From NCBI GenBank assembly GCA_937902925.1, contig CALFNN010000040.1, forward strand, positions 1 through 64,000: a stretch of DNA of 64,000 nt. The letters are read 5' to 3'. A program made the position numbers and the translations under genes. The stretch is from an uncultured Opitutaceae bacterium (GTDB lineage: Bacteria > Verrucomicrobiota > Verrucomicrobiia > Opitutales > Opitutaceae). Below, one piece after another: positions 14,891-42,208 of this stretch; position 1 is the first letter of the stretch; each line of letters starts with the position of its first letter. The notes beneath the pieces were generated by a model that searched no databases, was not told the DNA's origin, and worked only from the letters and a program-made list of their open reading frames with translations.

Positions 14891-15051
14891 CGAAACGAAA
14901 GGCTATGTTTCCCGGTGCGTTTGGAAGAAGGACGCGGGCCGCGCGAGTTCCTTAGAGCGAGAATAACCATGCACAACCAGCTTTAAATGATAATTCGCAA
15001 CGACCTGCAGCATTGCGGTCAGGTGATTTCCCCACCACGAATCCCGCTGGA

Positions 15052-17094
15052 ATGAAACCACGGCCCAAGCCAGCCGCCGGAGCGCCTTGCGCAAGGACCC
15101 GCTCGCGGCCCTGGAGGCAATGGCTGGTCATCGTTTTGCTGGCCTCGCCGCTCGCAGGCCGCGCGGCATTTTTCCTGCGCAATGAAGGACGGTTTCTCAT
15201 CCTCGAGGATGAGGTTGGCTACCGAATCGACCTGCCGCCGACGGCGCCAATCGAGCAGGTGCTGGCCACGAGCGACGGTTGGTTGACTCAGCGCGACAAG
15301 CCGTTTCAGCCGGCCTCCGAGCCGCTCAGCCTGTGGGCCCGGTTCGAATTGCCATCCGTCGGCGAACCGCGGCAAGTCCTGCTCGATACCAGCCCATGGG
15401 AAACGGTCGACTACTACTTCGTCCGCGACGGTAGGGTCGTCGACCACCAGCGAACCGGGATCTTCGTGCCTTTGGCGGACCGGGCCACGCGGGTCACCAT
15501 GACGGGACAGTTTTTGCACGGGGGCTTCGTGGCGCTGGAATTGCAGCCCGGAACCCGGGCCATCGTCTATGCGCGGCTGGCCAGCAACCAGCGATTCGGG
15601 CCGATCCGGTGGTTGAAATTCTACCTTTGGGACACGGCGCAAGTTCTGAAAGGCGAGCGGCGCGACCGGACGTTTCAATGCATTTACTTGGGAGTGCTGC
15701 TGGTTCTCATCATCTACAATCTGGCCCTTTTTATCATCATCCGGGAGCGCAGCCATCTGTATTACGTGCTCATGGTCGTCGGAGGCGGATTCATCTGGGG
15801 AGCTCTCTTTGGCCTGACGGACGAATTTCTCTCGCCGCACTGGAGCGAAGCCGAGATCTATGGCACTTGGATCGGCGCCTTTGGTTCGGGCTGGGCGGGC
15901 TGCCAGTTCGTGCGTCGTTATCTTGGCACGGACCGCATTCTGCCACGTGACGATGCCTTGCTGCGGGGGCTCGGCGTTGCCAACCTGGTGCTCGCTGCGG
16001 CTTTCTTTTTGCTGCCATTGCTCAAGGGCAGGTTCGCTCCGGGCGGCCCGGTGATGTTCGGGGCCGCGGCGCTCTGGTTTGCGGTGCTCATCCTGATCCT
16101 GCTCGTGGTCGTTGTGCGGGCGGTCGCCCGAGGTCACCCGCCGGCCCGGTTTTTTCTTGGCGCCGTGCTCGTCTCGTGCGTCGGATCGCTGGTCACGGGA
16201 GCCGCGCTGCTCCAGTTGCTGCCCAGCACTGAAATTACGCTGCAGGCCGGGCAAATCGGCACGTGCATCACGGGCATCGTCCTCTCGCTCGGACTGGGTT
16301 TCCGGATGCAACGCCTGCGAACCGAGGCCGCCGACCGGCAGCTCGCGCACGAGCGGGAAAAACTCGACCTGGTCGAGGAGCACAACCGCGGCCTCGAAAC
16401 GAAAGTGCGCGAACGCACCGCCGAACTCGCCGCGGCGCGGGAGAAATCCGATTCGCTCCTGGCGAACATCCTCCCACAGGCCATCATCGAGGAACTGACC
16501 GCGAAGGGCGAGACGGAGCCGCGGCGGCACGAGGAAGTTTCCATGCTCTTCACGGATTTTTCCGGGTTCACGCAAACGGTGGCAACAATCCCGCCGAAGC
16601 GCCTCGTGCAGGAGCTGGATGAAATTTTCCGCGGCTTTGACGACATCGTGGCCGCGCACGGCCTGGAAAAGATCAAGACGATCGGCGACGCCTACATGAC
16701 GGCCTCCGGGCTGCCGCTCCCGGCGGCGGACCACGCCGTGCGCTCGGTGCGCGCCGCGCTGGCGTTGACCCGCTTCATCGAAACGCGCAACACGACGGCG
16801 GCCATGAAGTGGGGCTTGCGCGTTGGCATCCACTCCGGCGCGGTGGTGGCCGGGATCGTGGGCAAACACAAGTATGCCTACGACGTGTGGGGCGACACCG
16901 TGAATATTGCCAGCCGGCTGGAAAGCGCGTCCGAGCCCGGCCGCGTCAACATCTCGGCCTACACCTACGAACTGGTGCGGGACCGGTTTGTCTGCGAATA
17001 CCGCGGCAAGCTCGCGGCCAAGGGCAAGGGCGCGATCGACATGTATTTTGTCGGGCGGGAAATCACGGGAAGTGTCGTGGTGCCTTCAACGTGA
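15052..17094 (+). CDS. 7TM-DISM receptor fused to class III adenylate cyclase
   Basis: A 680-residue inner-membrane signalling enzyme that would make cAMP. After an N-terminal hydrophobic signal or anchor comes a periplasmic 7TMR-DISMED2 sensor domain (about residues 35-175), then seven membrane helices (about 200-410). A coiled-coil linker (EREKLDLVEEHNRGLETKVR) leads to the cyclase domain (about 480-670). Metal-binding aspartates are D502 in LFTDFSGF and D546 in TIGDAYM. The Lys of LEKIKTIGD and Asp of YDVWGDTVN fit ATP specificity, and NIASRLES supplies the transition-state Asn/Arg. ATG 15052 is preferred over an upstream in-frame ATG at 15013. DISMED2 domains are thought to bind carbohydrates, so the enzyme may sense glycans. 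An MFS gene follows after 16 bases. Confidence 0.9.
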   Translation: MKPRPKPAAGAPCARTRSRPWRQWLVIVLLASPLAGRAAFFLRNEGRFLILEDEVGYRIDLPPTAPIEQVLATSDGWLTQRDKPFQPASEPLSLWARFELPSVGEPRQVLLDTSPWETVDYYFVRDGRVVDHQRTGIFVPLADRATRVTMTGQFLHGGFVALELQPGTRAIVYARLASNQRFGPIRWLKFYLWDTAQVLKGERRDRTFQCIYLGVLLVLIIYNLALFIIIRERSHLYYVLMVVGGGFIWGALFGLTDEFLSPHWSEAEIYGTWIGAFGSGWAGCQFVRRYLGTDRILPRDDALLRGLGVANLVLAAAFFLLPLLKGRFAPGGPVMFGAAALWFAVLILILLVVVVRAVARGHPPARFFLGAVLVSCVGSLVTGAALLQLLPSTEITLQAGQIGTCITGIVLSLGLGFRMQRLRTEAADRQLAHEREKLDLVEEHNRGLETKVRERTAELAAAREKSDSLLANILPQAIIEELTAKGETEPRRHEEVSMLFTDFSGFTQTVATIPPKRLVQELDEIFRGFDDIVAAHGLEKIKTIGDAYMTASGLPLPAADHAVRSVRAALALTRFIETRNTTAAMKWGLRVGIHSGAVVAGIVGKHKYAYDVWGDTVNIASRLESASEPGRVNISAYTYELVRDRFVCEYRGKLAAKGKGAIDMYFVGREITGSVVVPST

Positions 17095-27710: not shown

Positions 27711-27837
27711 ACGACCGTGAGGATCCCACCGGGTTGAAGGACTGGATGCGGATTTTCGGCGGACGGCGGGTCGTTCGTCTTGCCGAAACCGGCTCCCGGG
27801 CGTAGTTTTGCCGGCACTCTGTCGGAATTCATCCCCT

Positions 27838-30351
27838 GTGTTCTTGTCGCCTCCACGGTCACTTCTTTCCTTCGCGCCCGGCTGCTGGCTCCTCCTCGGA
27901 AGCTGGGTTTCCGCCATCTGGGCCGCGCCCTCCGGACTCCCGATCGTTCCGGCGGCCGTTTTCAATGTCGTCAGCTACGGCGCCGTTGGTGATGGCACCA
28001 CCAACAACACCGCCGCGATCCAGGCCGCGCTGAACGCCGCCCGCACCGCCGGCGGCATCGTCGAGTTTCCCGCCGCGCCCGGCTCCTACCGCAGCGGGCC
28101 GATCACGGTCTACAGCCGGACGAACCTCCAGGTCGACGCCGGTGCGACGTTGCAGGCGTTGCCCTTCGGCACCTATCCGAACAGCACGACCTCGCCCTCG
28201 CATTTCATCACGATCAACTCCGGCTCGAACAACGTCGCGATCACCGGCGCCGGCACGATCGACGGCGATGGCGCGGCCTGGTGGGCGGCCTTCAACGCCG
28301 GCACGATCTCCAACCGGCCCCGCCTCATCCAGTGCACCCACGCCGATACCGTGCTCGTATCGGGCCTCACGCTGTCGAACTCGCCGATGTTTCACCTCGC
28401 GCTCAGCACGACCAACAACGTCACCATCGACGGCGTGACGATCACCGCGCCGACGACCGCGCCCAACAGCGACGGCATCGATCCCGGCGGCCTGCACTAC
28501 CTCATCAAGAACTGCACGATTTCCGTCGGTGACGACAACATCGCCATCAAGCCCGGGAGCACGGTCTGCGGCGACATGACTGTCGTCGATTGCACCTTCG
28601 GCACCGGCCACGGACTGTCCATCGGCGGCCAGACCAATCTGGGGCTCGACGGCCTCGTCGTCGACCGTTGCTCGTTCACCGGCACGACCAGCGGCCTGCG
28701 CCTCAAGGCCGACCCGACGCAAGGCGGCCTCGTGCAAAACCTCACCTACTCGAATATCACGATGACCAACGTCCAATATCCCATCGTGTTTTACAGCTAC
28801 TACGTCGACGTCGGGACGCCCGGCGCGGTCAGCGGCTCGAACCAGACCACCGTGGATAAAGTCGCGTCGTGGAACGCCACTCCGCCAAATTCCCTGAAGT
28901 CCTCCACCCTCTCGCGCTGGCAGAACATCACCCTCTCCAACATCACCGCCACCGGCGCGACGGGCTACAGCACGATCTGGGGTCTTCCCCTCGCGACCGC
29001 GCTGATCTCCAATGTCACGCTCGACAACGTTCACCTCTCCGGCTCCGTCGGCCTCGAGATCTTCAACGCGCAGAATGTCCGGTTCACCGGCGACTCCGCC
29101 GTCACCGTTCCGAACGGCGTCCCCGCCTTCGTCACCTACAACGCGCTCGCCATCACGTCGCCGCCCCAAAGCCAGGCCGCCACCGTCGGTTCAACCGCGA
29201 CCTTCACGATCGGCACCACCGGCGTGGGCGGCCTGCAAAACGCCGCTTCCAGCTACCAGTGGAGCTTCAACGGCATCCCGCTCGCCGACGGCGCCTCGTC
29301 CGACGGCACGATCGTTTCGGGTGCCACGACCGCGACGCTCTCGCTCGCCAACGTCCAGCCCTCCGCCGCCGGAAGCTACACGGCCAAGGTCAGCAACGCT
29401 CTCGACACCTACGACGCCACCGTCACGACCCTTGCCGCCGCCAACACGCCCGTCTCCGCGACGAGTTCGCCCGCGTTGCTCGGCGTGTCGACGACGGCCA
29501 AGGTGATCGGCGCCGGGCAGGAGTTGCAGCCGACCGACATCGTCCATCCCAACGGAAATATCTTCGACCAGGTGCTGCTCACGGGCGCGGCGGCGACGAT
29601 CACCGCCGACACCAACCAGGTCACGCGGCTCTCCTACGTCGATCTCAGCGATGACATCGTGCAGGTCGAGTTCAGCGGCGCGGGCGCGCTCTCGCTGCTC
29701 CTCGACAACTCGTCTGGTCCAGCCGCCGCGGTGAATTACTACCAACCAACCGTCGCCTACATGAAGGGGCACGCGGGCATCGTGATCACTGGCGCGAACG
29801 AAACGACCAACGTCTCCGTCTTCACCGTGGGCCGCGCCACCGCGTTCGATCCGACCGGCGCTTACAACATTCTCCTGCCTCCTGGCGCGACGAACGACCC
29901 CGCGGTCAACGGCAGTCCGCTTTTTCAGGGTCACACCTCGACCAGCTACGACGGCGTCGCGGACATCGCGTTCATCGCGATCTCCAGCACAAACGGAAAA
30001 TTCGGCGGCGTGCGCACCTCCAACGCCAGCTACGTCGCCACCAGCGGGCTTGCCGGCATCTACGCGCCCGGCGTGCAATTCACCGGTCCGGTCTTCGTCG
30101 GCAACATCAACGCGTCCGGCTCGGCCACGCCCGTGATCATGATCGGGTCCTCTGCCGACACCCGGATCACCGGCGGCGATCTGCTCCAGTCCAACGGCCA
30201 GCCCGTCGTCGTCAGCGGCCTCGCCCGGCTCAACTTCACCGCCGGCGTCACGTCGGCCGGCACCACCCTCCCGGCGCAGACCAACAAGGCTCACCTCCAG
30301 CAAAACGGCGCCGACGTGACCGCGCAAGTCGTGGCGAACGCCGCCCCGTAG
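27838..30351 (+). CDS. Secreted GH28 polygalacturonase-type glycoside hydrolase with Ig-like region
   Basis: An 837-residue protein starting at GTG 27838, directly before a signal peptide (LLSFAPGCWLLLGSWVSAIWA); a TTG at 27808 is the alternative. The pectate-lyase-3/GH28 beta-helix occupies about residues 40-440 and begins FNVVSYGAVGDGTTNNTAAI. GH28 catalytic sets are present: D212 in NSDGIDPG, D232-D233 in GDDNIAI and H258 in GTGHGLSIGG. It should hydrolyse alpha-1,4-galacturonan or a related alpha-linked uronide or rhamnoside. An Ig-like segment follows (about 445-545, with SYQWSFNGIPLADGASSDG), then an uncharacterised beta-rich C-terminus of about 290 residues. It fits upstream of KDG kinase in pectin use. 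Confidence 0.85.
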   Translation: MFLSPPRSLLSFAPGCWLLLGSWVSAIWAAPSGLPIVPAAVFNVVSYGAVGDGTTNNTAAIQAALNAARTAGGIVEFPAAPGSYRSGPITVYSRTNLQVDAGATLQALPFGTYPNSTTSPSHFITINSGSNNVAITGAGTIDGDGAAWWAAFNAGTISNRPRLIQCTHADTVLVSGLTLSNSPMFHLALSTTNNVTIDGVTITAPTTAPNSDGIDPGGLHYLIKNCTISVGDDNIAIKPGSTVCGDMTVVDCTFGTGHGLSIGGQTNLGLDGLVVDRCSFTGTTSGLRLKADPTQGGLVQNLTYSNITMTNVQYPIVFYSYYVDVGTPGAVSGSNQTTVDKVASWNATPPNSLKSSTLSRWQNITLSNITATGATGYSTIWGLPLATALISNVTLDNVHLSGSVGLEIFNAQNVRFTGDSAVTVPNGVPAFVTYNALAITSPPQSQAATVGSTATFTIGTTGVGGLQNAASSYQWSFNGIPLADGASSDGTIVSGATTATLSLANVQPSAAGSYTAKVSNALDTYDATVTTLAAANTPVSATSSPALLGVSTTAKVIGAGQELQPTDIVHPNGNIFDQVLLTGAAATITADTNQVTRLSYVDLSDDIVQVEFSGAGALSLLLDNSSGPAAAVNYYQPTVAYMKGHAGIVITGANETTNVSVFTVGRATAFDPTGAYNILLPPGATNDPAVNGSPLFQGHTSTSYDGVADIAFIAISSTNGKFGGVRTSNASYVATSGLAGIYAPGVQFTGPVFVGNINASGSATPVIMIGSSADTRITGGDLLQSNGQPVVVSGLARLNFTAGVTSAGTTLPAQTNKAHLQQNGADVTAQVVANAAP

Positions 30352-30539
30352 CTTCCGGCGGCCTCGCTCGCGACCGACGTCGCCCGAAGCGTTCCGTCGC
30401 TCGGCTCGCCGGCCCCGCGGCCGCGAGATGCGAGTTGCACAGTTTATTTACACATCTCTGGCCGGGTGCGGCCCTTGGCGACTTAAGAACGCCCGGCCGT
30501 GGCCGCTATTGCTTTCGCGACCGTCTGCGTCGGCTCGTC

Positions 30540-30995
30540 ATGTTTTCCCAACCATCATCGTCCGTCGCTCCTTCTTCGCCCCCGGCGGCGCCTGGCCCCA
30601 ATCCGATCACGCCAACCCCGCGCGGCCTGATTCTCGTGGTCGACGACTCCGCCATGATCCGCGCGGCTGTCGGCAAGACGCTCCACGGCGCCGGTTACGA
30701 GACGCTTTTCGCCGTCAACGGCCGCGACGGCCTCGCTGTCTGGGAGCGGGACAAGGCGCGCATCACGCTCGTCCTCTCCGATGTGTTCATGCCCGAGATG
30801 GACGGTCTCACCATGGCGGGCGAACTCCGCCGCCGCCATCGCACGCTGCCCGTCGTGCTCATGAGCAGCAAACTCGATGAGGACAGCCGCTGGGTCGCCG
30901 AGGAGGCGGGATTCCGCCTGTTGCCGAAACCTTTTCGCGATGCCCTCCTGCTCGAGCTCATCGCCCGCATGATTCGCCTGCGCGCCGGCGGTTGA
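30540..30995 (+). CDS. Single-domain response regulator (CheY-like)
   Basis: A 151-residue protein: a Pro/Ser-rich tail of about 28 residues followed by one receiver domain. The acidic pair lies in LILVVDDSAMIR, the phospho-acceptor Asp in LVLSDVFMPEMDG, the Ser switch in LMSSK and the Lys in LPKPF. No output domain is present, so it acts through a partner protein. Its end meets the next gene: the TGA stop overlaps a possible TTG start of the cNMP-binding membrane protein, and that gene's ATG lies 15 bases on. The two are therefore probably co-translated and functionally linked. No histidine kinase is adjacent; the kinase operon starts 9 kb away. Confidence 0.85.
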   Translation: MFSQPSSSVAPSSPPAAPGPNPITPTPRGLILVVDDSAMIRAAVGKTLHGAGYETLFAVNGRDGLAVWERDKARITLVLSDVFMPEMDGLTMAGELRRRHRTLPVVLMSSKLDEDSRWVAEEAGFRLLPKPFRDALLLELIARMIRLRAGG

Positions 30996-31009
30996 CGCGC
31001 GCGATTGCG

Positions 31010-32986
31010 ATGCATCTCGAAAGCAATCTCCTGCTCACCGCGGAAACGCTCCACCTGGAGCCCGGCCTCGTCCGTGGCCGGACGGTCCGCGGCGCCCTCG
31101 CCCTCAAGCGGGTCGCGTCGGGAACGTATCTCCTCGTCAACGAACTCCAGGCCCGGGTCCTCGATGAGTTCACGTCGCCGCGTAACGTGCCGGACGCGCT
31201 CGAGAGCTGCATCCGCCAGCGCATTTGTCCGCCGCTGCGCGAATTCTACGACCTGATCCTGAAGGCCCACCACGCCGGCGTCCTGCGCAGCGAGGAACTC
31301 GATCCCACGGGACCGGCTCCAATCCCGCGCCCGGCCGTGCGCTGGTTTGTCCCGCTGCCGCCCGCGGGCGGTGTTGCCCTGGCCGGCGCCGGCGCAATCG
31401 CCACCCTCGTCGCCCTCGCGCTGTGGCTTCCGGCGGTGCCCCGGGATCGCGCCGATTTTCTTCGCGGCTGGCTCGCAGTCTGCGGCGCCCTGAGCGCCGG
31501 GCACCTGCTCGCGGCCTCGGCGCTGCGCGGCGCCGGCTGCGAGGTGCACCGGCCCCGCCTGCGGTGGCTCACGCTTGCGCCCCATTTCGCCGTCGAACTG
31601 GAGGACCGCTGCATGGCCGGCCGGATGGGTCGCGCGGCGGTCCTGGCGCTGACGATTCTGCCGCTCGGCCTCGCGACCGCCGCCGGCCTCTGGCGGCACC
31701 AGCCCTGGGTGTTTCCGCCGCTCGTCGCGCTTTTCTTTTTTTGCCGGCCCATCGGGGACACGGTGACCGGCAATCTTCTCTTGTTGCTCCGCCGCGAACC
31801 GGTGCTTGCGACCGACGGCGCGCCACTCTTCGACGCCCGGCTCAGCCTCGTCGAATTGTGGCGCGTCGCTTGGCGGCGTTTCGATCTGCGGGTGACCGTC
31901 CTTCAGTTCGCGCTCGGGATCGGATGGGCCCTGGGTTTCAGTTTCGTTGTCGACCGCACCGCGCACCTCGGCCTCTGGCAACGACTGCTCGCCTGGCCCA
32001 ACCGCCAGACGGACTTCACCGCGGCGGGCATCGTGGCGGGCGGCGTCGTGGCGTTTTGGATCGCGACCAGCCTGCAGTATCGCGTCATCGACGCCAGTGT
32101 CGCCGCGTGGCGCCGTGGCACCGCCGAGCTCCGTCGCTGGCGCGCCGCCAGGGGGCCGGCCTCCGACCCGGTCGAGCTCGAGGCGCTCATCCGCCGCAAT
32201 CCGCTTCTGCGCCGCCTCGACCCGGATGTGCAGGCGGAACTCGTCGGACTCCTGCAACCGCTCCGCGCCCGTCCGTGGCGCAAGCTGGTCACCTTCGACG
32301 AAACACCCGCGACCGTCGGCTTCATTCTCACGGGACGCGCCACCGTTTACCAACGGCTGAAATCCGGTCGCAAGGCGCGTTTCTTCGGAATCATCGACGG
32401 CGATCTCTTCGGCGCCCACAAGCTCGTCGATCCCCACGGCGCGAGCCTCGAGGTGCGGACCAACACCCCGGTCGTGGCCGTGACCCTGGGTCGCGAGGAT
32501 TTTCAGCGCCTGGTCGTCGACACCCTCGGCGTGCCCGCGGTCTGCCGCTATGTGCACAACCACCTCTTTCTCCATCGCGCCGCGGCGCTCTGCGCCGACT
32601 GGCGGCCGGCCGCGATCGCGCGCTTCGCCGAGCTCGCGACAACCGCCACGCATTCCGCGGGCGGCAAGATCATCCTGCAGGGCCAGGAGGTCGGCAGCCT
32701 CCACGTGCTCTACGAGGGCCAGGCCCGCGCCCTCAAGGACCGCAAGCCGGTCGCGCGCCTGCGCCCCGGCGATTTCTTTGGCGAGATCAGCCTGCTGCAA
32801 ACGAGCGCGGCGACCGCCGACGTCGAGACGACCGAGGATACCAGCTGTCTCGTCGTCAACCGGGTCGAGTTCATCCGTTTCATCTCCCGCAACCAGCACG
32901 TCGCGCTGCAACTCGAACGCCTGTGTTCGAAGCGGCTCGGCCACCCGATTTTTCCTCTCGACCATCAGTCGTTCGACGTGCGGTAG
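31010..32986 (+). CDS. PqqD-like / degenerate M50-like membrane protein with two cNMP-binding domains
   Basis: A 658-residue protein with an unusual domain order. Residues 1-75 resemble a PqqD-like winged helix (LHLEPGLVRGRTVRG, then LLVNELQARVLDEF). Residues 110-365 hold about six membrane helices arranged like an M50 site-2 protease, but where HExxH should be it reads SAGHLLAASALRG, so zinc catalysis is unlikely. The C-terminus carries two cyclic-nucleotide-binding domains (about 390-510 and 530-640), the second with the phosphate-cassette-like LRPGDFFGEISLLQTSAATA. ATG 31010 is chosen; TTG 30992 would overlap the response regulator stop. It could be a cAMP-gated membrane scaffold. cAMP could come from the cyclase at 15 kb. 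Confidence 0.65.
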   Translation: MHLESNLLLTAETLHLEPGLVRGRTVRGALALKRVASGTYLLVNELQARVLDEFTSPRNVPDALESCIRQRICPPLREFYDLILKAHHAGVLRSEELDPTGPAPIPRPAVRWFVPLPPAGGVALAGAGAIATLVALALWLPAVPRDRADFLRGWLAVCGALSAGHLLAASALRGAGCEVHRPRLRWLTLAPHFAVELEDRCMAGRMGRAAVLALTILPLGLATAAGLWRHQPWVFPPLVALFFFCRPIGDTVTGNLLLLLRREPVLATDGAPLFDARLSLVELWRVAWRRFDLRVTVLQFALGIGWALGFSFVVDRTAHLGLWQRLLAWPNRQTDFTAAGIVAGGVVAFWIATSLQYRVIDASVAAWRRGTAELRRWRAARGPASDPVELEALIRRNPLLRRLDPDVQAELVGLLQPLRARPWRKLVTFDETPATVGFILTGRATVYQRLKSGRKARFFGIIDGDLFGAHKLVDPHGASLEVRTNTPVVAVTLGREDFQRLVVDTLGVPAVCRYVHNHLFLHRAAALCADWRPAAIARFAELATTATHSAGGKIILQGQEVGSLHVLYEGQARALKDRKPVARLRPGDFFGEISLLQTSAATADVETTEDTSCLVVNRVEFIRFISRNQHVALQLERLCSKRLGHPIFPLDHQSFDVR

Positions 32987-32993
32987 CGGGGCC

Positions 32994-33031
32994 GCGGGCG
33001 GCGCGGAGCGAACTTTCTCCGCACCGCCCGC
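32994..33031. terminator. Bidirectional stem-loop between convergent genes
   Basis: Fifteen-base GC-rich arms (32994-33008 and 33017-33031) pair with one mismatch around an 8-base loop. It sits between the stops of the cNMP-binding protein and the beta-galactosidase. There is no T-run, but position and stability fit a shared transcription end. Confidence 0.55.
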
Positions 33032-33040
33032 GCACCCGGC

Positions 33041-34894
33041 CTACCGCCCGGGATCCAGCTCCGGCCGCAGTTCGTTGAGGATCGGCTTGTCCAGGCCGGC
33101 GAGCATCGGTCTGGCAGGCCCCTCGAGATCGAGCACGATCACCTCGTTGCGACCGGCGTGCAGCCATGAGCGCGGCACGTAGGCCGTCTGCGTCGGGCCG
33201 ATGTTCCAGAAGCGCGCCAGGCACCGGCCGTTGATCCACACCACGCCTTTGCCCCAGGAATAAAGATCCAGGAAGGTGTCGGCCGGAATCTTCATCTCGA
33301 AACTCCCGCGCCAGAACGCCGGCCCTTTTTCTTCGCCGGTCCCCGCGGTTTTCCATTTCAGGCCGGCCAGCATCGGCAACTCGAGGCCCAGCGGGTAAAC
33401 CCGCCATGGCGTCACCTCGGTCGCCGCGCCATCCGCCACCACACGCACCGGACCCTGCAGTCCTTTGCGATCGTGGATCTCCCTGCCGAAATTGATGTGC
33501 CCCGCGGCCTCGACCAGCACGTCGAGCCGCGACTCCGCCGCGCGCGCCGGCAATTGCATTTGCATCGCCTTCCCGCGCCGGTCCAGTTCCCCGACCGGCC
33601 GGCCATCGATGAACACCCACATGAAATCGTGCGGTTGTCCCAGCTCGAGTGCCGCCGCGGGACCCGCCGGCAGCGCGGCGCGATACACGATGCAGCCGCG
33701 ACCCTGGTCGTAGGCCTCCATGTTGCGCGGCGCGGCATCCGCGATGGGCACCGGCAGGTTGTCGAACACCGCGGCACGCTCGGTCAGCAGGAAGGGATCG
33801 ACATTCGTCACCGGGTTGGCCGCCGGGGGCTCGGGCAGCGTCTCGCCGGGCGCGAGGTATTTTTTGATCAGCTCGCGCGTCGCCGCGAATTTTTCCGTCG
33901 CCCAGCCCGCCTCGCTGATTGGCGCGTCGTAGTCGTAGCTGCTCGTGTCGGGCTTGAACGGCCGGTCGGTGCCGGACCAGAGCCCGAAGGTCGTCCCGCC
34001 GTGGGCCATGTAGATGCTGAACGACGCACCCACCTTCAGCATGTATTCGAGGTCGGCGAGGTAACGCGGCGTGTTGCCCGTGTGATGCTCCACGCCCCAC
34101 GTGTCGAACCATCCCGGATAAAATTCGCCGCACATCGGCGGACCCTTCGGCTGCACCGCGCGCAACGCTGCGAACCCCTTCTCCGGGTCCTTGCCGAAAT
34201 TCACGACTTGAAACAAGTCGCTGCGCAATCCGTTCTTCAGGTCGCCGGGTGGATTGCACGCGAAGAGCGGCACGTCGAAGCCGCCGTCGAGCAGCGCCTG
34301 CCGCATCGCGCCCATGTAGTCCGCGTCCTTGCCGTAGGAGCCATATTCGTTCTCGACCTGCACGAGCAGAATCGGCCCGCCGTGCGTCACCTGCTGCGGC
34401 CCGAGCACGCGGCCGACTTCCTTCAGCCATGCGCGCGCCGGCGTCATAAAATCCGGGTCGAGCGAGCGCAGGCGGATGTCCGGTTTCTTCAACAGCCACC
34501 ACGGCAGACCGCCCCCGTCCCACTCCGCGCACGCATACGGTCCCGGCCGCAGGATGACCCACAGGCCCTCCTCCTGCGCGATCCGGCAGAACTCGGCCGC
34601 GTCCGCCTGGCCGCTCCAGTCGTAGACGCCTGGCCGCCACTCGTGGAAATTCCAAAACAAATAGGCGCACACCGCGTTGAGTCCCATCGCGCGGCACATC
34701 TGAAGCCGCTGGCGCCATTCCGCGCGCGGCATCCGGGCGAAATGGATCTCGCCGCACCGGATCTGCAGCGGCTTGCCGTCGAGCAGGAAATCTTTGTCGC
34801 CGATGGCAAACGTGTGCCGCGGCGACTGGGCCGCAACCGTCGTCAGAACCCCGAGGCAGACCAGACCAGTGAGCAGACGGGTAAGAGCGCGCAT
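33041..34894 (-). CDS. Secreted GH35 beta-galactosidase
   Basis: A 617-residue enzyme with a signal peptide (LLTGLVCLGVLTTVAAQS). It would remove terminal beta-linked galactose from plant or algal oligosaccharides in the periplasm. The TIM barrel starts FLLDGKPLQIRCGEIHFARM, typical of GH35. The acid/base is E183 in VQVENEYGS and the nucleophile E257 in MCGEFYPGWFD. The C-terminal jelly-roll domains include VVWINGRCLARFWNIGPTQT. The length is normal for bacterial GH35 enzymes. The fucosidase gene lies 121 bases upstream on the same strand, and both appear to belong to one glycan-degradation unit. Exact linkage preference cannot be told. Confidence 0.92.
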   Translation of the reverse strand: MRALTRLLTGLVCLGVLTTVAAQSPRHTFAIGDKDFLLDGKPLQIRCGEIHFARMPRAEWRQRLQMCRAMGLNAVCAYLFWNFHEWRPGVYDWSGQADAAEFCRIAQEEGLWVILRPGPYACAEWDGGGLPWWLLKKPDIRLRSLDPDFMTPARAWLKEVGRVLGPQQVTHGGPILLVQVENEYGSYGKDADYMGAMRQALLDGGFDVPLFACNPPGDLKNGLRSDLFQVVNFGKDPEKGFAALRAVQPKGPPMCGEFYPGWFDTWGVEHHTGNTPRYLADLEYMLKVGASFSIYMAHGGTTFGLWSGTDRPFKPDTSSYDYDAPISEAGWATEKFAATRELIKKYLAPGETLPEPPAANPVTNVDPFLLTERAAVFDNLPVPIADAAPRNMEAYDQGRGCIVYRAALPAGPAAALELGQPHDFMWVFIDGRPVGELDRRGKAMQMQLPARAAESRLDVLVEAAGHINFGREIHDRKGLQGPVRVVADGAATEVTPWRVYPLGLELPMLAGLKWKTAGTGEEKGPAFWRGSFEMKIPADTFLDLYSWGKGVVWINGRCLARFWNIGPTQTAYVPRSWLHAGRNEVIVLDLEGPARPMLAGLDKPILNELRPELDPGR

Positions 34895-35015
34895 CGTGAA
34901 GGACGCGAGGCTAGGCGCTGCCCGCCACCCGAGACGAGCCTATTGAGGTTGAGGGGCAACCGCCTGACGAATCCCCACGCCCCCCGCGCTCCCGCGACCG
35001 GCGGTTCCGCGAGGT

Positions 35016-36431
35016 TCAGTTGCTTCCCTTTGCCCGCACCGCATCCCCCTCGATCTCGAGGCAAAGCACGTTGGCCGTCGCATCCGGCCCCTGCCGCTGC
35101 ACGCGCACCGTGCGGATGCCATTCACGATCTCGATGCCGCAGGGCGCCCGCTTCGGATCGCCGAGAATGTAGGCCCGGGTGATTTTGTTTTCGAACGCCG
35201 GCAGCTCGATCGTCCCGCGGCGGTCGCCGAAATAGAAGAAATAAAGTTTCCCCGGCTTTGTCGTGCAGCGCCAGAGCGACAGCGTCAGGAAAAGCGGCTG
35301 TCCGTTGCGGTCCTTTTGGGTGGGACTGAATTCGCCGAACTCGGCACCGAACGGCGAACGGCCCGCTCCGTAAACCGCCTCGCCGTTCACCTTCAGCCAG
35401 TCGCCCACGACCCGCAGGTTATCCGCGCACGCCGGCGGAATCTCCCCGGTGGCATCGGGCCCGACGTTCAACAGGAAATTTCCACCCTTGCTCACCACGT
35501 CGACCAGCTTGAACAAAATTTCCGTCGGCGACTTCCAGTCCCGGTCGTCGCGGCGGTAGCCCCAGGTGTGGTTGATCGTCATTGGCGTCTCCCAGTCGCC
35601 TTCCGCCGTCAGGTTCGGCACGGTGTTGTCGTCGGTGGTCTCGTAGTCGCCCGCGTGGCCCAGCCGTCCATCGATGAGGCACGCCGGTTGCAGCTCGTGG
35701 ACGAGGTCCACGAAGCGCCGGCCGCGTTCGGCGGTCATCATCTGCGGCGTATCGAACCAGATGCAGCTCACCGGGCCGTAGTGTGTCAGCAGCTCGCGCA
35801 CCTGCGGCTCGGCCTTCTCGCGCAAATAGCGGTCGTAGGCGCCGTCGCGGTCTTTCTGCGGATCGGGCCCGAAGTCCCACGTGTTCCCCGCGCCGCCCGG
35901 CTCGTGCCAGTCCTGCGCCTGCGAATAATAAAACCCCAGTCGCAGCCCGTGCTTCGCGCAGGCCGCCGCGAGTTCGGCCAGCGCGTCGCGGCCGAACGGC
36001 GTCGCCTCCGCCACGTTGAACGGGCTGACCGTCGAGCGATACATCGCGAACCCGTCATGGTGCTTCGCCGTGATCACGAGATATTTCATGCCCGCGTCCT
36101 GCGCGAGCTTCACCCACGCCTCGGCATCGAATTTCTGCGGATTCCATTCGTGGGCGAGCGCCGCGTAGTCCGCCGCGGGAATCTTCGCGTGCTGCATGAT
36201 CCATTCGCCGAAGCCCGGCTGCCGCGCGCCGTGCCAGTAGCCCGCCGGGATCGCGTAGAGTCCCCAGTGGATGAAGAGCCCGTATTTCGCCTCGCGAAAC
36301 CACGCCATCCGCTCGTCCTGCGCCGCGCTCGGCCTCGCCATTCCGGCCGTTTCCCCCGCCGCGAGCGGCACGGCGCCGAAAAATTGTGCCAGACACGGCA
36401 GGAACAAGATGAAACAGGGGCGCAATTTCAT
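35016..36431 (-). CDS. Secreted GH29 alpha-L-fucosidase
   Basis: A 471-residue enzyme with a signal peptide (MKLRPCFILFLPCLAQFFGA). It would release alpha-L-fucose from glycans such as xyloglucan, RG-I/II or fucoidan-type chains. GH29 signatures are WFREAKYGLFIHWGLYAIP near residue 44, AKHHDGFAMY near residue 122 and the nucleophile D227 in CIWFDTPQMM. The general acid is less conserved in this family and was not assigned. ATG 36431 is chosen because AAGGGG lies eleven bases upstream; ATG 36446 is in frame. It is followed by the GH35 gene and is divergent from a small membrane protein gene. No sulfatase gene is adjacent. Confidence 0.92.
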   Translation of the reverse strand: MKLRPCFILFLPCLAQFFGAVPLAAGETAGMARPSAAQDERMAWFREAKYGLFIHWGLYAIPAGYWHGARQPGFGEWIMQHAKIPAADYAALAHEWNPQKFDAEAWVKLAQDAGMKYLVITAKHHDGFAMYRSTVSPFNVAEATPFGRDALAELAAACAKHGLRLGFYYSQAQDWHEPGGAGNTWDFGPDPQKDRDGAYDRYLREKAEPQVRELLTHYGPVSCIWFDTPQMMTAERGRRFVDLVHELQPACLIDGRLGHAGDYETTDDNTVPNLTAEGDWETPMTINHTWGYRRDDRDWKSPTEILFKLVDVVSKGGNFLLNVGPDATGEIPPACADNLRVVGDWLKVNGEAVYGAGRSPFGAEFGEFSPTQKDRNGQPLFLTLSLWRCTTKPGKLYFFYFGDRRGTIELPAFENKITRAYILGDPKRAPCGIEIVNGIRTVRVQRQGPDATANVLCLEIEGDAVRAKGSN

Positions 36432-36580
36432 GGATCGCCCCTTCATTCATGGCGGCAGTCGGCCCGGCGGCAAACCCGGACATCACCGATTTGCGCCCAA
36501 TCGGGAACTTTGGCCGCCGGTGTCATACCATGAGCTGGAGTTCCGTCCGCCTTTGCTCGCGAACTCAATCCCCTCCCACC

Positions 36581-36736
36581 ATGGCTCACCTCTTCCTCGC
36601 CATCTTTCTCCTCGTGTTCGGACTGAACATCCTTGTGGGCATTTCGATTCCCACGTGGGTGATCGGCCTGCTGGCCGTGATCGCCGGCGCGCTCCTGCTG
36701 CTGGATCGTGTCGGCCCCGGCCGCAGGCAGTCGTAG
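36581..36736 (+). CDS. Small hydrophobic membrane protein, unknown
   Basis: A 51-residue protein, MAHLFLAIFLLVFGLNILVG and IPTWVIGLLAVIAGALLLL, with two membrane helices joined by a short turn and a basic C-terminal tail (DRVGPGRRQS). It resembles the many tiny two-helix proteins of unknown function in bacteria. It lies between the fucosidase (divergent) and an esterase gene 91 bases downstream. The frame remains open upstream to 36449, but that part looks non-coding. Confidence 0.5.
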   Translation: MAHLFLAIFLLVFGLNILVGISIPTWVIGLLAVIAGALLLLDRVGPGRRQS

Positions 36737-36827
36737 ACCGTTCTTCGCCGGCCCGCCTCGGCGCAGCGGAACGAAGCGGCCGCGCTTTCGCCTGTAAATT
36801 CGCTCCGATTTGGCGAGACTCGCCGGG

Positions 36828-37751
36828 ATGAAAGTCTCCGCCCCGCTCTTGCTCTCGCTCGCCCTTCTGTCCCGCTCCATCGCGGCCGAAATCCCCGGCT
36901 TGATTCCCCTCTGGCCCGGTGCCGCTCCTGGCTCGGAAAAACTCACCATCGCCGAGAAGGTCACGGAGCGCAGCACCGATCCGGCGAAACACGACCGCAT
37001 CTACACGCAGATCGTCACGCCGTCGCTCCTCGTTCACCGCCCCGAGCATCCCAATGGCGTCGCCGTCATCGTTGCGCCCGGCGGCGGCTACTTGCGCATC
37101 GTGATCGACAAGGAGGGGCCCGACACCTCCGCGTGGCTCAACCGCCTCGGCGTGACCGCGTTCGTCCTGAAATACCGCCTGCCCGGCGAGGGCCATGCGC
37201 ACGGCGAGGATGTCGCCTTGCAGGATGCGCAGCGTGCCGTCCGGGTCATCCGCGCCCACGCCGCCGAGTGGGGCCTGGACCCGGCGCGCGTCGGCTTCAT
37301 CGGTTACTCGGCCGGTGGACACCTCGCCGCCTCGCTCGAGTTCTTCTCGGACAAATCCATCTACGCTCCCGTCGACGACGCCGACCAGCTCAGCGCCCGC
37401 CCGGATTTCTCCGTGCTCGGCTACGCGCTCGCCGGCGCCAAGGGCACGCGGCCCGCGTCGCTCGACGGTCTCTCCGCCCAGCAGCGCCTGATGTGGAAAT
37501 ACAAGATCGAGGCCACCCCCGGCGTGAAATATCCGCCGGCCTTCATCCTCCAGGCCGACGACGATCCGACGGTCAACCCGCAGGACGCCGCCACGATCTA
37601 CCTCGCGCTCAAGCAAAACGGCACGCCGGCCGAGATGCACGTTTTCCGCCATGGCGGACACGGCTTTGGCATTCGCGACGCGAAGGGTCCCGTCACGCTC
37701 TGGCCGGAACTTTGCGCCGATTGGATGAAGGAGATCGGCGTCCTGCACTGA
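36828..37751 (+). CDS. Secreted alpha/beta-hydrolase, esterase (BD-FAE / acetyl-esterase-like)
   Basis: A 307-residue enzyme with a signal peptide (VSAPLLLSLALLSRSIAAEI). It would cleave ester groups, probably acetyl or feruloyl esters on polysaccharides. The fold carries the oxyanion segment VIVAPGGGYLR near residue 85, nucleophile S161 in GYSAGGH, D246 in QADDDPTVN and H278 in RHGGHGFG. The N-terminal LWPGAAPGS is a usual feature of secreted xylan or pectin esterases in this group. ATG 36828 is chosen; an in-frame TTG lies 18 bases upstream. Position beside the fucosidase and galactosidase supports polysaccharide deacetylation, though it is divergent from them. Confidence 0.82.
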   Translation: MKVSAPLLLSLALLSRSIAAEIPGLIPLWPGAAPGSEKLTIAEKVTERSTDPAKHDRIYTQIVTPSLLVHRPEHPNGVAVIVAPGGGYLRIVIDKEGPDTSAWLNRLGVTAFVLKYRLPGEGHAHGEDVALQDAQRAVRVIRAHAAEWGLDPARVGFIGYSAGGHLAASLEFFSDKSIYAPVDDADQLSARPDFSVLGYALAGAKGTRPASLDGLSAQQRLMWKYKIEATPGVKYPPAFILQADDDPTVNPQDAATIYLALKQNGTPAEMHVFRHGGHGFGIRDAKGPVTLWPELCADWMKEIGVLH

Positions 37752-39937: not shown

Positions 39938-42208
39938 ATGCACGATCCCGCCCCAGGTGTTCCGGCGCGCAATCATCGCGTCCTCGTGATCGACGACAAC
40001 GTCTCGATCCATGCCGACGTGCGTAAAATTCTCTGTCCGCAACAGACCGAGGCCGCGGCGACCATCGACGCGCTGGAAGCCGAACTCCTGGGCGAACCGT
40101 CCACGCCGCTCGCCAACCGGCCCGTGCCGGATTTCGTTGTCGACTCCGCCCATCAGGGCCGCGAAGGCCTCGGCCTCGTCTTGAAGGCGATCTCGGAGGG
40201 CAAGCCCTATGCCATGGCCTTCGTCGATGTGCGGATGCCGCCCGGCTGGGATGGCGTCGAGACGACCCTCGAACTGTGGAAGGTCGCGCCTGACCTCCAG
40301 ATTGTGATCTGCACCGCGTATTCGGACTACTCGTGGGACGACATGCTCGCCCGCATCGGCGGCACCGACCGGCTGGTCATCCTGAAAAAACCCTTCGATA
40401 CGATCGAGGTCCTGCAGCTCGCCAACGCGCTCACGGAAAAGTGGAACCTGCTCCAGCAAAGCCGCGCGCAGGCCAACGACCTCGAGCAGCGCGTGCGCAT
40501 CCGCACCGCCGAGCTCGAGGCGGCGAACGAAACCCTGCACGAGGAGATCGGCCGGCGCGTCCTGATCGAGCTCGACCTGAAGCGCGCGAAGGACGCCGCC
40601 GAGGCCGCCGACGTGGCCAAGAGCGCCTTCCTCGCGAACATGAGCCACGAGATCCGGACGCCGATGAACGGCGTCATCGGCATGGCCAACCTTCTCCTCG
40701 GCACCCCGCTCAACGTCGAACAGCGCGACCTCGCCCAGACGCTCTGCCAGAGCGGCGAGGCGTTGCTCACGATCATCAACGAAATCCTCGACTTTTCGAA
40801 GATCGAGGCCGGCCGCCTGACGCTTGAATTGATCGACTTCGACCTGGCCGAACAACTTGCCCTCGCCTTCGACCTTCATGCCGAGGCCGCCGCGCGCAAG
40901 GGGCTCGAGCTCGTCATGGACATCGATTCGGCGGTGCCCCCGCGCGTCTGCGGCGATCCCGTGCGGCTCCGCCAGATCGTCCTCAACTTGCTCGGCAACG
41001 CGATCAAGTTCACCGCCCGCGGCGAAGTCGTGCTCCGCGTCACCCTCGACCGGGCGTTGCCCGGTGGCTCGCGGCTGCGTTTCGAGGTCACCGACACGGG
41101 CATCGGCATCCCGCAGGATATCCAGGCCACGCTCTTCAGTCCTTTCGTCCAGGCCGACAGCTCGACCACCCGCCGGTTCGGCGGCACCGGTCTCGGCCTC
41201 GCCATCTGCCGCCGGCTCGCGGAGCTCATGCACGGCCAGATCGGCGTGACCAGCGCACCTGGTGCCGGTTCAAAATTCTCGTTCACCGTCGAGCTGGCCG
41301 CCGCCCTCGACGGCGCACCCAAGCTCACGCTCGCACCGTCGTTCCTCGAGGAGCATCACGCCCTGATCGTCGACGACAACGCCACCAACCTAAAGCTCCT
41401 CGGGCATCTTTGCACCACCTGGCGCCTGCGCCACAGCTGCGCCGATTCCGCCGCCGCCGCGCTCGCCCACCTGCGCACCGCCGCCACGCGGTCGCCGTTC
41501 GACCTGGTGATTCTCGACCATCACATGCCGGAGACCGACGGTCTCGGCCTGACGCGCGCGATCCTCGCCGATCCCGCGATTCCCCGGCCCACGATGGTGA
41601 TGCTGACATCCCGTGGCGAACGCCTGCCGCACGCGGTGCTCGGCGCCCATGGCATCGCCACCTGCGAATTGAAGCCGATCCATCCGGACCGGCTGCGCAC
41701 GACGCTCGGCCGCGTGCTGGCCGAATCCCGCCGCGCGGCGCCGGCGCCGGCACCCGTCGGGCTCCGCGTGGCGCCGCCACCGCCATCCGCGGGAGGCACC
41801 GCCATCCTCGTCGCGGAGGACAATCCCGTAAACCAGAAGGTGACGGTGCTCCAGTTGCGCAATCTCGGCTACGCGGCCGATGTGGCGGGCAACGGCCGCG
41901 AAGCCGTCGCCGCGCTCCGCCGCAAATCCTACTCTCTCGTCCTGATGGACGCCCAGATGCCCGAGATGGACGGCATCGAGGCCACGCGCTACATCCGCGC
42001 CGCCCAGGCGGCCGGCGAACCCGGCTTTCCGGCCAACCTGCGCATCGTGGCGATGACGGCGAACGCCATGTCCGGCGACCGCGAAATGTGCCTGGCCGCC
42101 GGGATGGACGACTACCTCGCGAAGCCCGTCCGCCCCGATGGGCTCCGCGACGTGCTCCAGCGTCTGCTCGGCCCGGAAAGTGCCAGCCCCGCCACCGTCG
42201 CTGCATGA
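39938..42208 (+). CDS. Hybrid sensor histidine kinase REC-HisKA-HATPase-REC-REC
   Basis: A 756-residue cytoplasmic protein with no membrane helix. A receiver with phospho-Asp D97 ([12 protein letters not shown]) comes first, then a coiled coil and the dimerisation domain with H237 in [14 protein letters not shown]. The ATPase has [19 protein letters not shown] and [10 protein letters not shown]. Two more receivers follow, the second Asp in [12 protein letters not shown] and the third in [11 protein letters not shown] with the Lys in LAKPV. This order makes a self-contained phosphorelay hub. The next gene overlaps by ATGA, so it is the first of a four-gene kinase operon. It has no DNA-binding domain; the final output must be elsewhere. 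Confidence 0.9.

What the first reader, a model, noticed from the sequence alone, without database searches (positions are those of the whole stretch)
31010..32986. Pseudo-M50 membrane protein with PqqD-like N-terminus and two cyclic-nucleotide-binding domains, next to a lone response regulator
Seen: domain order PqqD-like, six helices laid out like an M50 protease, then two cNMP domains; the HExxH site reads AGHLLAA. A single-domain response regulator is directly upstream, with a possible stop/start overlap. Known: intact PqqD/M50 proteins are peptide-processing or export factors. Inferred: loss of the zinc site plus gain of cNMP domains suggests a cAMP-controlled scaffold or anti-protease, possibly tied to phosphorelay input.
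Basis: partly seen in the sequence, partly recalled or inferred. Interest (0 to 1): 0.6.

Follow-up and report, generated by a model that had tools for sequence, protein, structure and literature searches.

The report
Disarmed membrane protease with signalling partner
This gene belongs to a family of bacterial membrane proteins built like a protein-cutting enzyme but lacking the cutting site and carrying signal-sensing domains instead; in the branch found here, one of those sensing sites has worn away and a phosphate-relay protein travels next to the gene, which suggests that one kind of signal was exchanged for another.

Summary
The 658-aa ORF at 31010-32986 has a PqqD/RRE-type N-terminus (residues ~7-104), a helical membrane domain distantly related to M50 site-2 proteases, and two CNB (cNMP) domains. 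A single-domain response regulator (RR) ends 14 bases upstream; the overlapping TTG start is not supported. I collected 97 members, 95 from the window's own order. None has a zinc site: HExxH aligns mostly with small-xxx-small, and the LDG aspartate is gone. Intact RRE-M50-HlyD relatives exist, one in the window's genome. cAMP control is unlikely for this protein: CNB1 lacks the cassette Glu and Arg, and CNB2 keeps Glu but lacks Arg. The unexpected result is a split in the family. Of 96 scorable members, 0 of 47 with an upstream RR keep a canonical CNB1 cassette, against 39 of 49 without. The RR-bearing rows lie in one clade, so this counts as one evolutionary event. All 47 paired RRs keep phospho-Asp, Ser and Lys. 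Best reading: a catalytically dead, RRE-bearing membrane receptor whose cytoplasmic input changed from cyclic nucleotide to a dedicated RR. What it binds and does is inferred. The anti-protease idea has no specific support.

The parts
30540..30995 (+). single-domain response regulator (151 aa from ATG; an upstream in-frame TTG at 30435 also opens)
   Evidence: PF00072 E 9.2e-19; phospho-Asp, second Asp of the acidic pair, Ser and Lys each in 47 of 47 paired RRs
31010..32986 (+). RRE - pseudo-M50 - CNB1 - CNB2 membrane protein, 658 aa
31028..31321 (+). RRE / PqqD-like domain, residues ~7-104
   Evidence: structure matches; RRE-vs-RRE profile E 1.2e-5
31361..32146 (+). M50-like helical membrane domain and long last helix leading to CNB1, residues 118-379
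   Evidence: AF2 models; S2P matches; hhalign
31490..31516 (+). ruined zinc site LSAGHLLAA (residues 161-169); by ungapped hhalign register HExxH = G164 H165 L L A168
32210..32569 (+). CNB1, residues ~401-520
   Evidence: PF00027 two stretches; model; PKA/PKG CNB rows over 385-521
32396..32458 (+). CNB1 cassette, degenerate here: DGDLFGAHKLVDPHGASLEVR (residues 463-483)
32579..32953 (+). CNB2, residues ~524-648
   Evidence: PF00027 best stretch 550-628; HCN-type CNB, best Z 20.6 over 493-643
32768..32824 (+). CNB2 cassette GDFFGEISLLQTSAATADV (residues 587-605): Glu592 kept, Arg position is Ala601
   Evidence: 0 of 96 members have Arg in this column

Best explanation
A proteolytically dead relative of the RRE-M50 intramembrane peptidases works as a membrane receptor or docking protein. 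SHOWN BY SEQUENCE AND MODEL: an RRE-fold N-terminus, a site-2-protease-like helical core without zinc ligands, and a long last helix running into two CNB domains. In one clade of the family, which includes the window, the CNB1 nucleotide cassette is lost and, in 47 of 49 members, a chemically intact single-domain RR gene sits immediately upstream. INFERRED: the RRE binds a short segment of a client protein or peptide. The former active-site groove binds but does not cut the client. The cytoplasmic CNB tandem gates that binding through the last helix. In the older form CNB1 read a cyclic nucleotide. In the window's clade the phosphorylated RR, docking on the protein (most simply on the CNB module), replaced that ligand as input. 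The client, the docking site and the biological output are unknown.
For: Zinc ligands absent in 97 of 97. Relation to intact RRE-M50-HlyD: E 2.1e-6 full, 1.2e-5 RRE only, 1.1e-4 membrane part only; reversed and shuffled controls of the full and membrane profiles 0.31-0.71. RRE and S2P folds found. RR upstream versus CNB1 cassette intact: 0 of 47 with RR, 39 of 49 without (Fisher 7e-18, not corrected for kinship). All 47 RR-bearing rows fall in one clade of 49 rows, SH-aLRT 100, on a tree built without the CNB1 columns. RR gap to the first conserved codon 6-39 nt in 45 of 47 and 76-78 in 2, same strand; phospho-Asp, Ser and Lys each 47 of 47. The degenerate cassette has conserved letters of its own. 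In one search, 12 genomes among the 54 hold the family, and all 12 have a class III cyclase match.
Against: RR gain and CNB1 loss sit on one branch, so their coupling cannot be tested statistically (independent pairs too few). The tree is a quick one with a midpoint root, so that the canonical cassette is the older state rests on its being usual for CNB domains, not on the tree. Mirror-tree correlation does not single out CNB1 (r 0.77-0.85 for all five parts). Two clade members (L082, L248) have no adjacent RR. Eight members outside the clade also have an altered CNB1 cassette, so loss does not need an RR. Receiver-domain genes of some kind also lie within 3.5 kb of 11 members with an intact cassette, in other positions or orientations. 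S2P Z values of 5.2-6.6 are below the level the tool calls safe, and Foldseek alone is not significant (best E 0.012). No direct evidence for client binding.
Confidence: 0.4

Rival explanations
1. Pseudo-protease with no signal swap: RR and membrane protein are simply co-inherited neighbours, and CNB1 in this clade drifted after becoming a purely structural domain.
For: RR gain and CNB1 loss map to one branch only; 8 of 47 members outside the clade have an altered cassette without any upstream RR.
Against: The RR stays adjacent in 47 of 49 clade members across long branches, while most other neighbour clusters are limited to close relatives. The degenerate cassette has its own conserved letters (His470 36 of 49, Asp474 39 of 49, Pro475 37 of 49), unlike free drift.
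Confidence: 0.3
2. CNB2, which keeps Glu but lacks Arg, is a sensor of an uncharged ligand such as a nucleoside, as in trypanosomatid PKA, and is the real ligand input of the whole family.
For: Glu592 in 94 of 96 (Asp in 2), Gly591 in 96 of 96, Arg column never Arg in 96. In trypanosomatid PKA the Arg is replaced and purine nucleosides bind (PMC10959531, abstract start and passages). An eight-member subclade also carries Glu (6) or Asp (2) two places after the cassette Glu/Asp, as the trypanosomatid cassettes carry a second Glu (L113, L206, L209, L211, L247, L249, L267, L268).
Against: The window itself has Ser594, not the second Glu. Loss of Arg is also common in CNB domains that bind no cyclic nucleotide (recalled).
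Confidence: 0.15
3. Anti-protease or decoy for an active M50 protease.
For: iRhoms, dead relatives of rhomboid proteases, inhibit rhomboid-dependent signalling (PMC3149277, abstract start in search listing); PF02163 M50 proteins in 34 of 34 genomes.
Against: Matches to the M50 part of the closest intact profile in only 5 of 12 searched holders, against 7 of 42 searched non-holders; no M50 gene was recognised among the recurrent neighbour clusters, which were read by eye.
Confidence: 0.1
4. Still an active metallopeptidase using other ligands.
For: The S2P-type core is kept. Four members carry EHxGH near residue 145 (L166, L203, L207, L214), outside the zinc-site helix position.
Against: At the site, both His columns hold no His in 97, the Glu column is Glu in only 10, the Asp column is never Asp; small-xxx-small in 95 of 97.
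Confidence: 0.02

Closest known systems
RRE/PqqD - M50 - HlyD proteins ('putative peptide zinc metalloprotease' type; name recalled) in the same bacterial family
   Same: RRE-type N-terminus, M50 core, shared landmarks GGEV, P..(Y/F)VD, and the Pro of NPL
   Different: Intact ones have HE(F/L/M)GH and NPL(L/M)(K/R)FDG in 6 of 6 and a HlyD-type C-terminus (Pfam in 3 of 3 scanned, one of them weak); here there is no zinc site, and CNB tandems take the place of HlyD
EGY3, plant chloroplast S2P pseudo-protease
   Same: Site-2-protease homologue without HExxH, classed as proteolytically inactive (PMC12389704, passages read)
   Different: No RRE, CNB or RR mentioned in the passages read; different kingdom and subfamily
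SpoIVFB / CBS-domain site-2 proteases
   Same: M50 core joined to a cytoplasmic regulatory domain (CBS; recalled)
   Different: CBS rather than CNB, and active (recalled)
Trypanosomatid PKA regulatory subunit
   Same: Tandem CNB with the cassette Arg replaced (PMC10959531, passages)
   Different: Soluble kinase regulator; a second Glu that the window lacks
iRhoms
   Same: Family of intramembrane pseudo-proteases (PMC3149277, listing only)
   Different: Rhomboid relatives, not M50

Membership tests
Peptidase family M50 (active site-2 protease) | HExxH zinc motif | tested here: not met
   0 of 97 members have it at the site; the only exact HExxH letters in the 97 lie in CNB1 of L263
Peptidase family M50 (active site-2 protease) | third ligand Asp in NPxxxxDG | tested here: not met
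   Asp in 0 of 97; Pro kept in 97 of 97
M50 fold / clan (pseudo-member) | helical core superposing on S2Ps and profile similarity | tested here: met
   hhalign E 2.1e-6, controls 0.31-0.71; S2P chains Z 5.2-6.6, moderate strength; the Pfam M50 model does not ring
RRE / PqqD-like domain | winged-helix RRE fold | tested here: met
   chains recalled as RRE-bearing fill rows 1-15, Z 6.9-10.0; row 17 names an RRE in its title; Pfam PqqD does not ring
RRE / PqqD-like domain | leader-peptide binding and RiPP cluster context | not testable with these tools
   binding needs an assay; neighbour clusters were read by eye, not annotated gene by gene
Cyclic-nucleotide-binding domain (PF00027) | fold | tested here: met
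   E 2.3e-23, two stretches; Z up to 20.6
cAMP/cGMP-responsive CNB | cassette Glu and Arg | tested here: not met
   window CNB1: Ala469, Ala478; CNB2: Glu592, Ala601. Met in CNB1 of 39 of 49 RR-less members
Response regulator receiver | phospho-Asp, acidic pair, Ser/Thr, Lys | tested here: met
   47 of 47 for phospho-Asp, second acidic residue, Ser and Lys; first acidic residue Asp 44, Glu 3

The most novel reading that the evidence does not exclude
In this branch of the family, a membrane pseudo-protease changed its cytoplasmic input from a cyclic nucleotide to a dedicated single-domain response regulator: the CNB1 ligand cassette was remodelled into a docking surface as the RR gene was recruited upstream. 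The protein would then be a membrane-embedded, RRE-guided peptide receptor under two-component control.
Probability: 0.35. Interest if true: 0.68.

Novelty: new variant of a known kind. Interest (0 to 1): 0.5.

Why it matters
The only site-2-type pseudo-protease I met in the papers is the plant protein EGY3 (passages). Here is a bacterial family of about 100 members with one branch that mostly keeps the CNB1 cassette and has no upstream RR, and another that lost the cassette and has the RR. That gives a natural comparison for asking how a ligand-controlled domain can be rewired to a protein partner, and what an RRE does when joined to a dead peptidase.

Tried and rejected
Pfam M50 and PqqD matches: none for the window protein (E up to 1) or for five relatives (E up to 5). 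Sequence search of the PDB with the membrane-half profile: no S2P or RRE among 17 rows up to E 10. Foldseek against PDB: no row at E 0.001 or better (best 0.012, TigE); Aquifex RseP listed only at E 5.7. Full-length VIA search: CNB rows fill the list. Mirror-tree test for which domain the RR tracks: not informative. Independent-pairs test of the RR/cassette link: too few pairs. The reversed-profile control was not run for the RRE half alone. Literature: no paper held all of CNB domain + M50 + PqqD, RRE + M50 + cyclic nucleotide or PqqD + M50 + HlyD + peptidase; one held CNB domain + M50 + Verrucomicrobi, seen in the listing only and about methanotrophs. Two RRE papers (PMC12710340, PMC7470986) searched for M50 and cyclic nucleotide gave no occurrence in the main text. 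The library is open-licence only, so this does not show that nothing is in print. PADLOC: only matches over the CNB2 region to Pycsar and TIR-effector models.

Fragmentary or contig-end hits in G379, G506, G514, G538, G546, G554 (two), G555, G567 and one short piece of G446 were not fetched. The 'intact cassette' label is a regular expression: L201 (Asp for Glu, Arg kept) and L207 (shifted Arg) were counted as degenerate, which works against the association.

Full report
WHAT IS THERE. The ORF at 31010-32986 (+) encodes 658 aa from the ATG. Pfam sees only the cNMP domain, in two stretches, and a receiver domain in the gene just upstream. The first AF2 model (17-row alignment) has mean pLDDT 83; a second, of residues 3-372 with a 50-row alignment, has 90.3. 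In the second, the first ~100 residues match chains that I recall as bearing RiPP recognition elements, which fill rows 1-15 of the structural comparison (Z 6.9-10.0). The helical part brings up site-2 proteases: RseP, SpoIVFB, M. jannaschii S2P and Aquifex RseP, Z 5.2-6.6. Those S2P scores alone would not settle it, and Foldseek by itself found nothing significant. The stronger test is sequence profiles. Against six intact RRE-M50-HlyD proteins from related genomes, one from the window's own genome, the family profile scores E 2.1e-6, probability 89. The RRE halves alone give 1.2e-5 and the membrane halves alone 1.1e-4 (probability 56); reversed or column-shuffled controls of the full and membrane profiles give 0.31-0.71. 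The alignment pairs GCEVH with GGEVR, PHFAVELED with PVPFVDTSA, and the Pro of RPI with that of NPL.

THE DEAD SITE. In the ungapped hhalign register, HExxH falls on G164-H165-L-L-A168. Across 97 members the first His column is Gly (85), Ser (7) or Ala (5); the Glu column is variable (Glu in 10); the second His column holds no His; small-xxx-small holds in 95; the Asp of LDG is never Asp, while the neighbouring Pro is invariant. The alternative register through L161, S162 and H165 also gives no HExxH. Four members have EHxGH near residue 145, upstream of the site. Six of six intact relatives have HExGH and NPLxxFDG. The loss is therefore family-wide in this sample, not a local accident.

FAMILY. 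A profile of the membrane half finds the family in 89 of 252 genomes and 21 of 49 genera of the window's family and in 17 of 337 genomes sampled across the phylum: 12 from the window's family, 3 elsewhere in the order, 1 in the class, 1 in the phylum. Of 102 regions held, 3 duplicates and 2 with internal stops were removed, leaving 97: 90 from the window's family, 5 from other families of the order, 2 from beyond. One of them ends before the CNBs.

THE SPLIT. The upstream RR divides the family. By a fixed pattern for the CNB1 cassette (Glu and Arg present), the 96 scorable members fall into RR + intact 0, RR + degenerate 47, no RR + intact 39, no RR + degenerate 10. On a tree built without the CNB1 columns (quick method, LG+G4, midpoint root), all 47 RR-bearing rows lie in one clade of 49 (SH-aLRT 100); the other two, L082 and L248, lack an adjacent RR; the remaining 8 degenerate rows lie outside. 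The association is thus one evolutionary event, and the Fisher value of 7e-18 must not be read as independent evidence. Within the clade the gap from RR to the first conserved codon is 6-39 nt in 45 of 47 cases and 76 and 78 in the others. Phospho-Asp, Ser and Lys are each conserved in 47 of 47 RRs. In the clade the CNB1 Glu column holds no Glu (Leu 28, Ala 18, others 3), the Arg column no Arg (Pro 32 of 49), and other letters are common: His470 in 36, Asp474 in 39, Pro475 in 37. In the other 47 members Glu is present in 43 and Arg in 41. CNB2 is uniform: Glu592 in 94 of 96 (Asp in 2), and no Arg in the Arg column in any of 96.

NEIGHBOURHOODS. In the first 18 neighbourhoods the RR is directly upstream in 10, and no other neighbour cluster reached more than 4 loci, apart from ORFs lying antisense to the two genes or overlapping them. 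With all members, most other recurrent clusters are limited to close relatives. Two results should be set beside this. Receiver-domain genes of some kind lie within 3.5 kb of 11 members with an intact cassette, in other positions or orientations. A serine/threonine kinase cluster lies near 7 members, none of which has the upstream RR: L082, L122, L217, L220, L225, L244 and L252 (Pfam kinase domain in the two scanned, L122 and L225). In the window the flanks are GH28, GH35 and GH29 glycoside hydrolase genes.

HOW IT MAY WORK. Shown: architecture, dead site, clade-wide pairing with a chemically intact receiver, loss of the CNB1 cassette in the same clade. Inferred: the RRE captures a peptide segment; the S2P-like groove holds it without cutting; the CNB tandem, reached by the long last helix (residues 336-379), gates this; a cyclic nucleotide on CNB1 was the old input and the RR is the new one. 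Class III cyclase matches occur in 38 of 54 searched genomes, including all 12 of those 54 that hold the family (one, G017, with an internal stop in its copy), so a cyclic nucleotide ligand is plausible for the RR-less branch. CNB2 might bind an uncharged ligand, by analogy with trypanosomatid PKA (passages of PMC10959531), but the window lacks the second Glu used there.

VERDICT. It is a true pseudo-M50 family with an RRE and CNBs, and the phosphorelay link is real at the level of genomic pairing. cAMP control is unlikely for this protein, and an anti-protease role is unsupported. Confidence: dead S2P relative about 0.9; pairing with RR as a functional unit about 0.7; input swap about 0.35-0.4.

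Noticed in passing
window 15013-17094 (+), catalytic domain 16519-17052: A class III cyclase gene (PF00211) lies about 14 kb upstream; PF00211 matches the window genome at 10 places, 9 of them over the cut-off.
   Followed up: partly
window 27808-37751: Carbohydrate-degradation genes flank the module: GH28 with Ig-like domains, GH35 beta-galactosidase, alpha-L-fucosidase, and an alpha/beta-hydrolase matching Abhydrolase_3 and BD-FAE. They did not recur among the neighbour clusters.
   Followed up: partly
window 39938-42208 (+): Hybrid histidine kinase with three receiver stretches 7 kb downstream; a possible but unproven partner of the lone RR.
   Followed up: no
L113, L206, L209, L211, L247, L249, L267, L268 (CNB2): An eight-member subclade has Glu (6) or Asp (2) two places after the cassette Glu/Asp, with the Arg lost, resembling trypanosomatid nucleoside-binding cassettes.
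   Followed up: partly
L082, L122, L217, L220, L225, L244, L252: A serine/threonine protein kinase cluster lies within 3.5 kb of seven members without the upstream RR, hinting at another phospho-signalling partner.
   Followed up: partly
L116 and L230: Family members interrupted by in-frame stops (one TAG; one TGA and one TAG), possibly pseudogenes or assembly errors.
   Followed up: no
L266: Two response regulator genes precede the membrane protein gene, at 10 and 570 bases.
   Followed up: no
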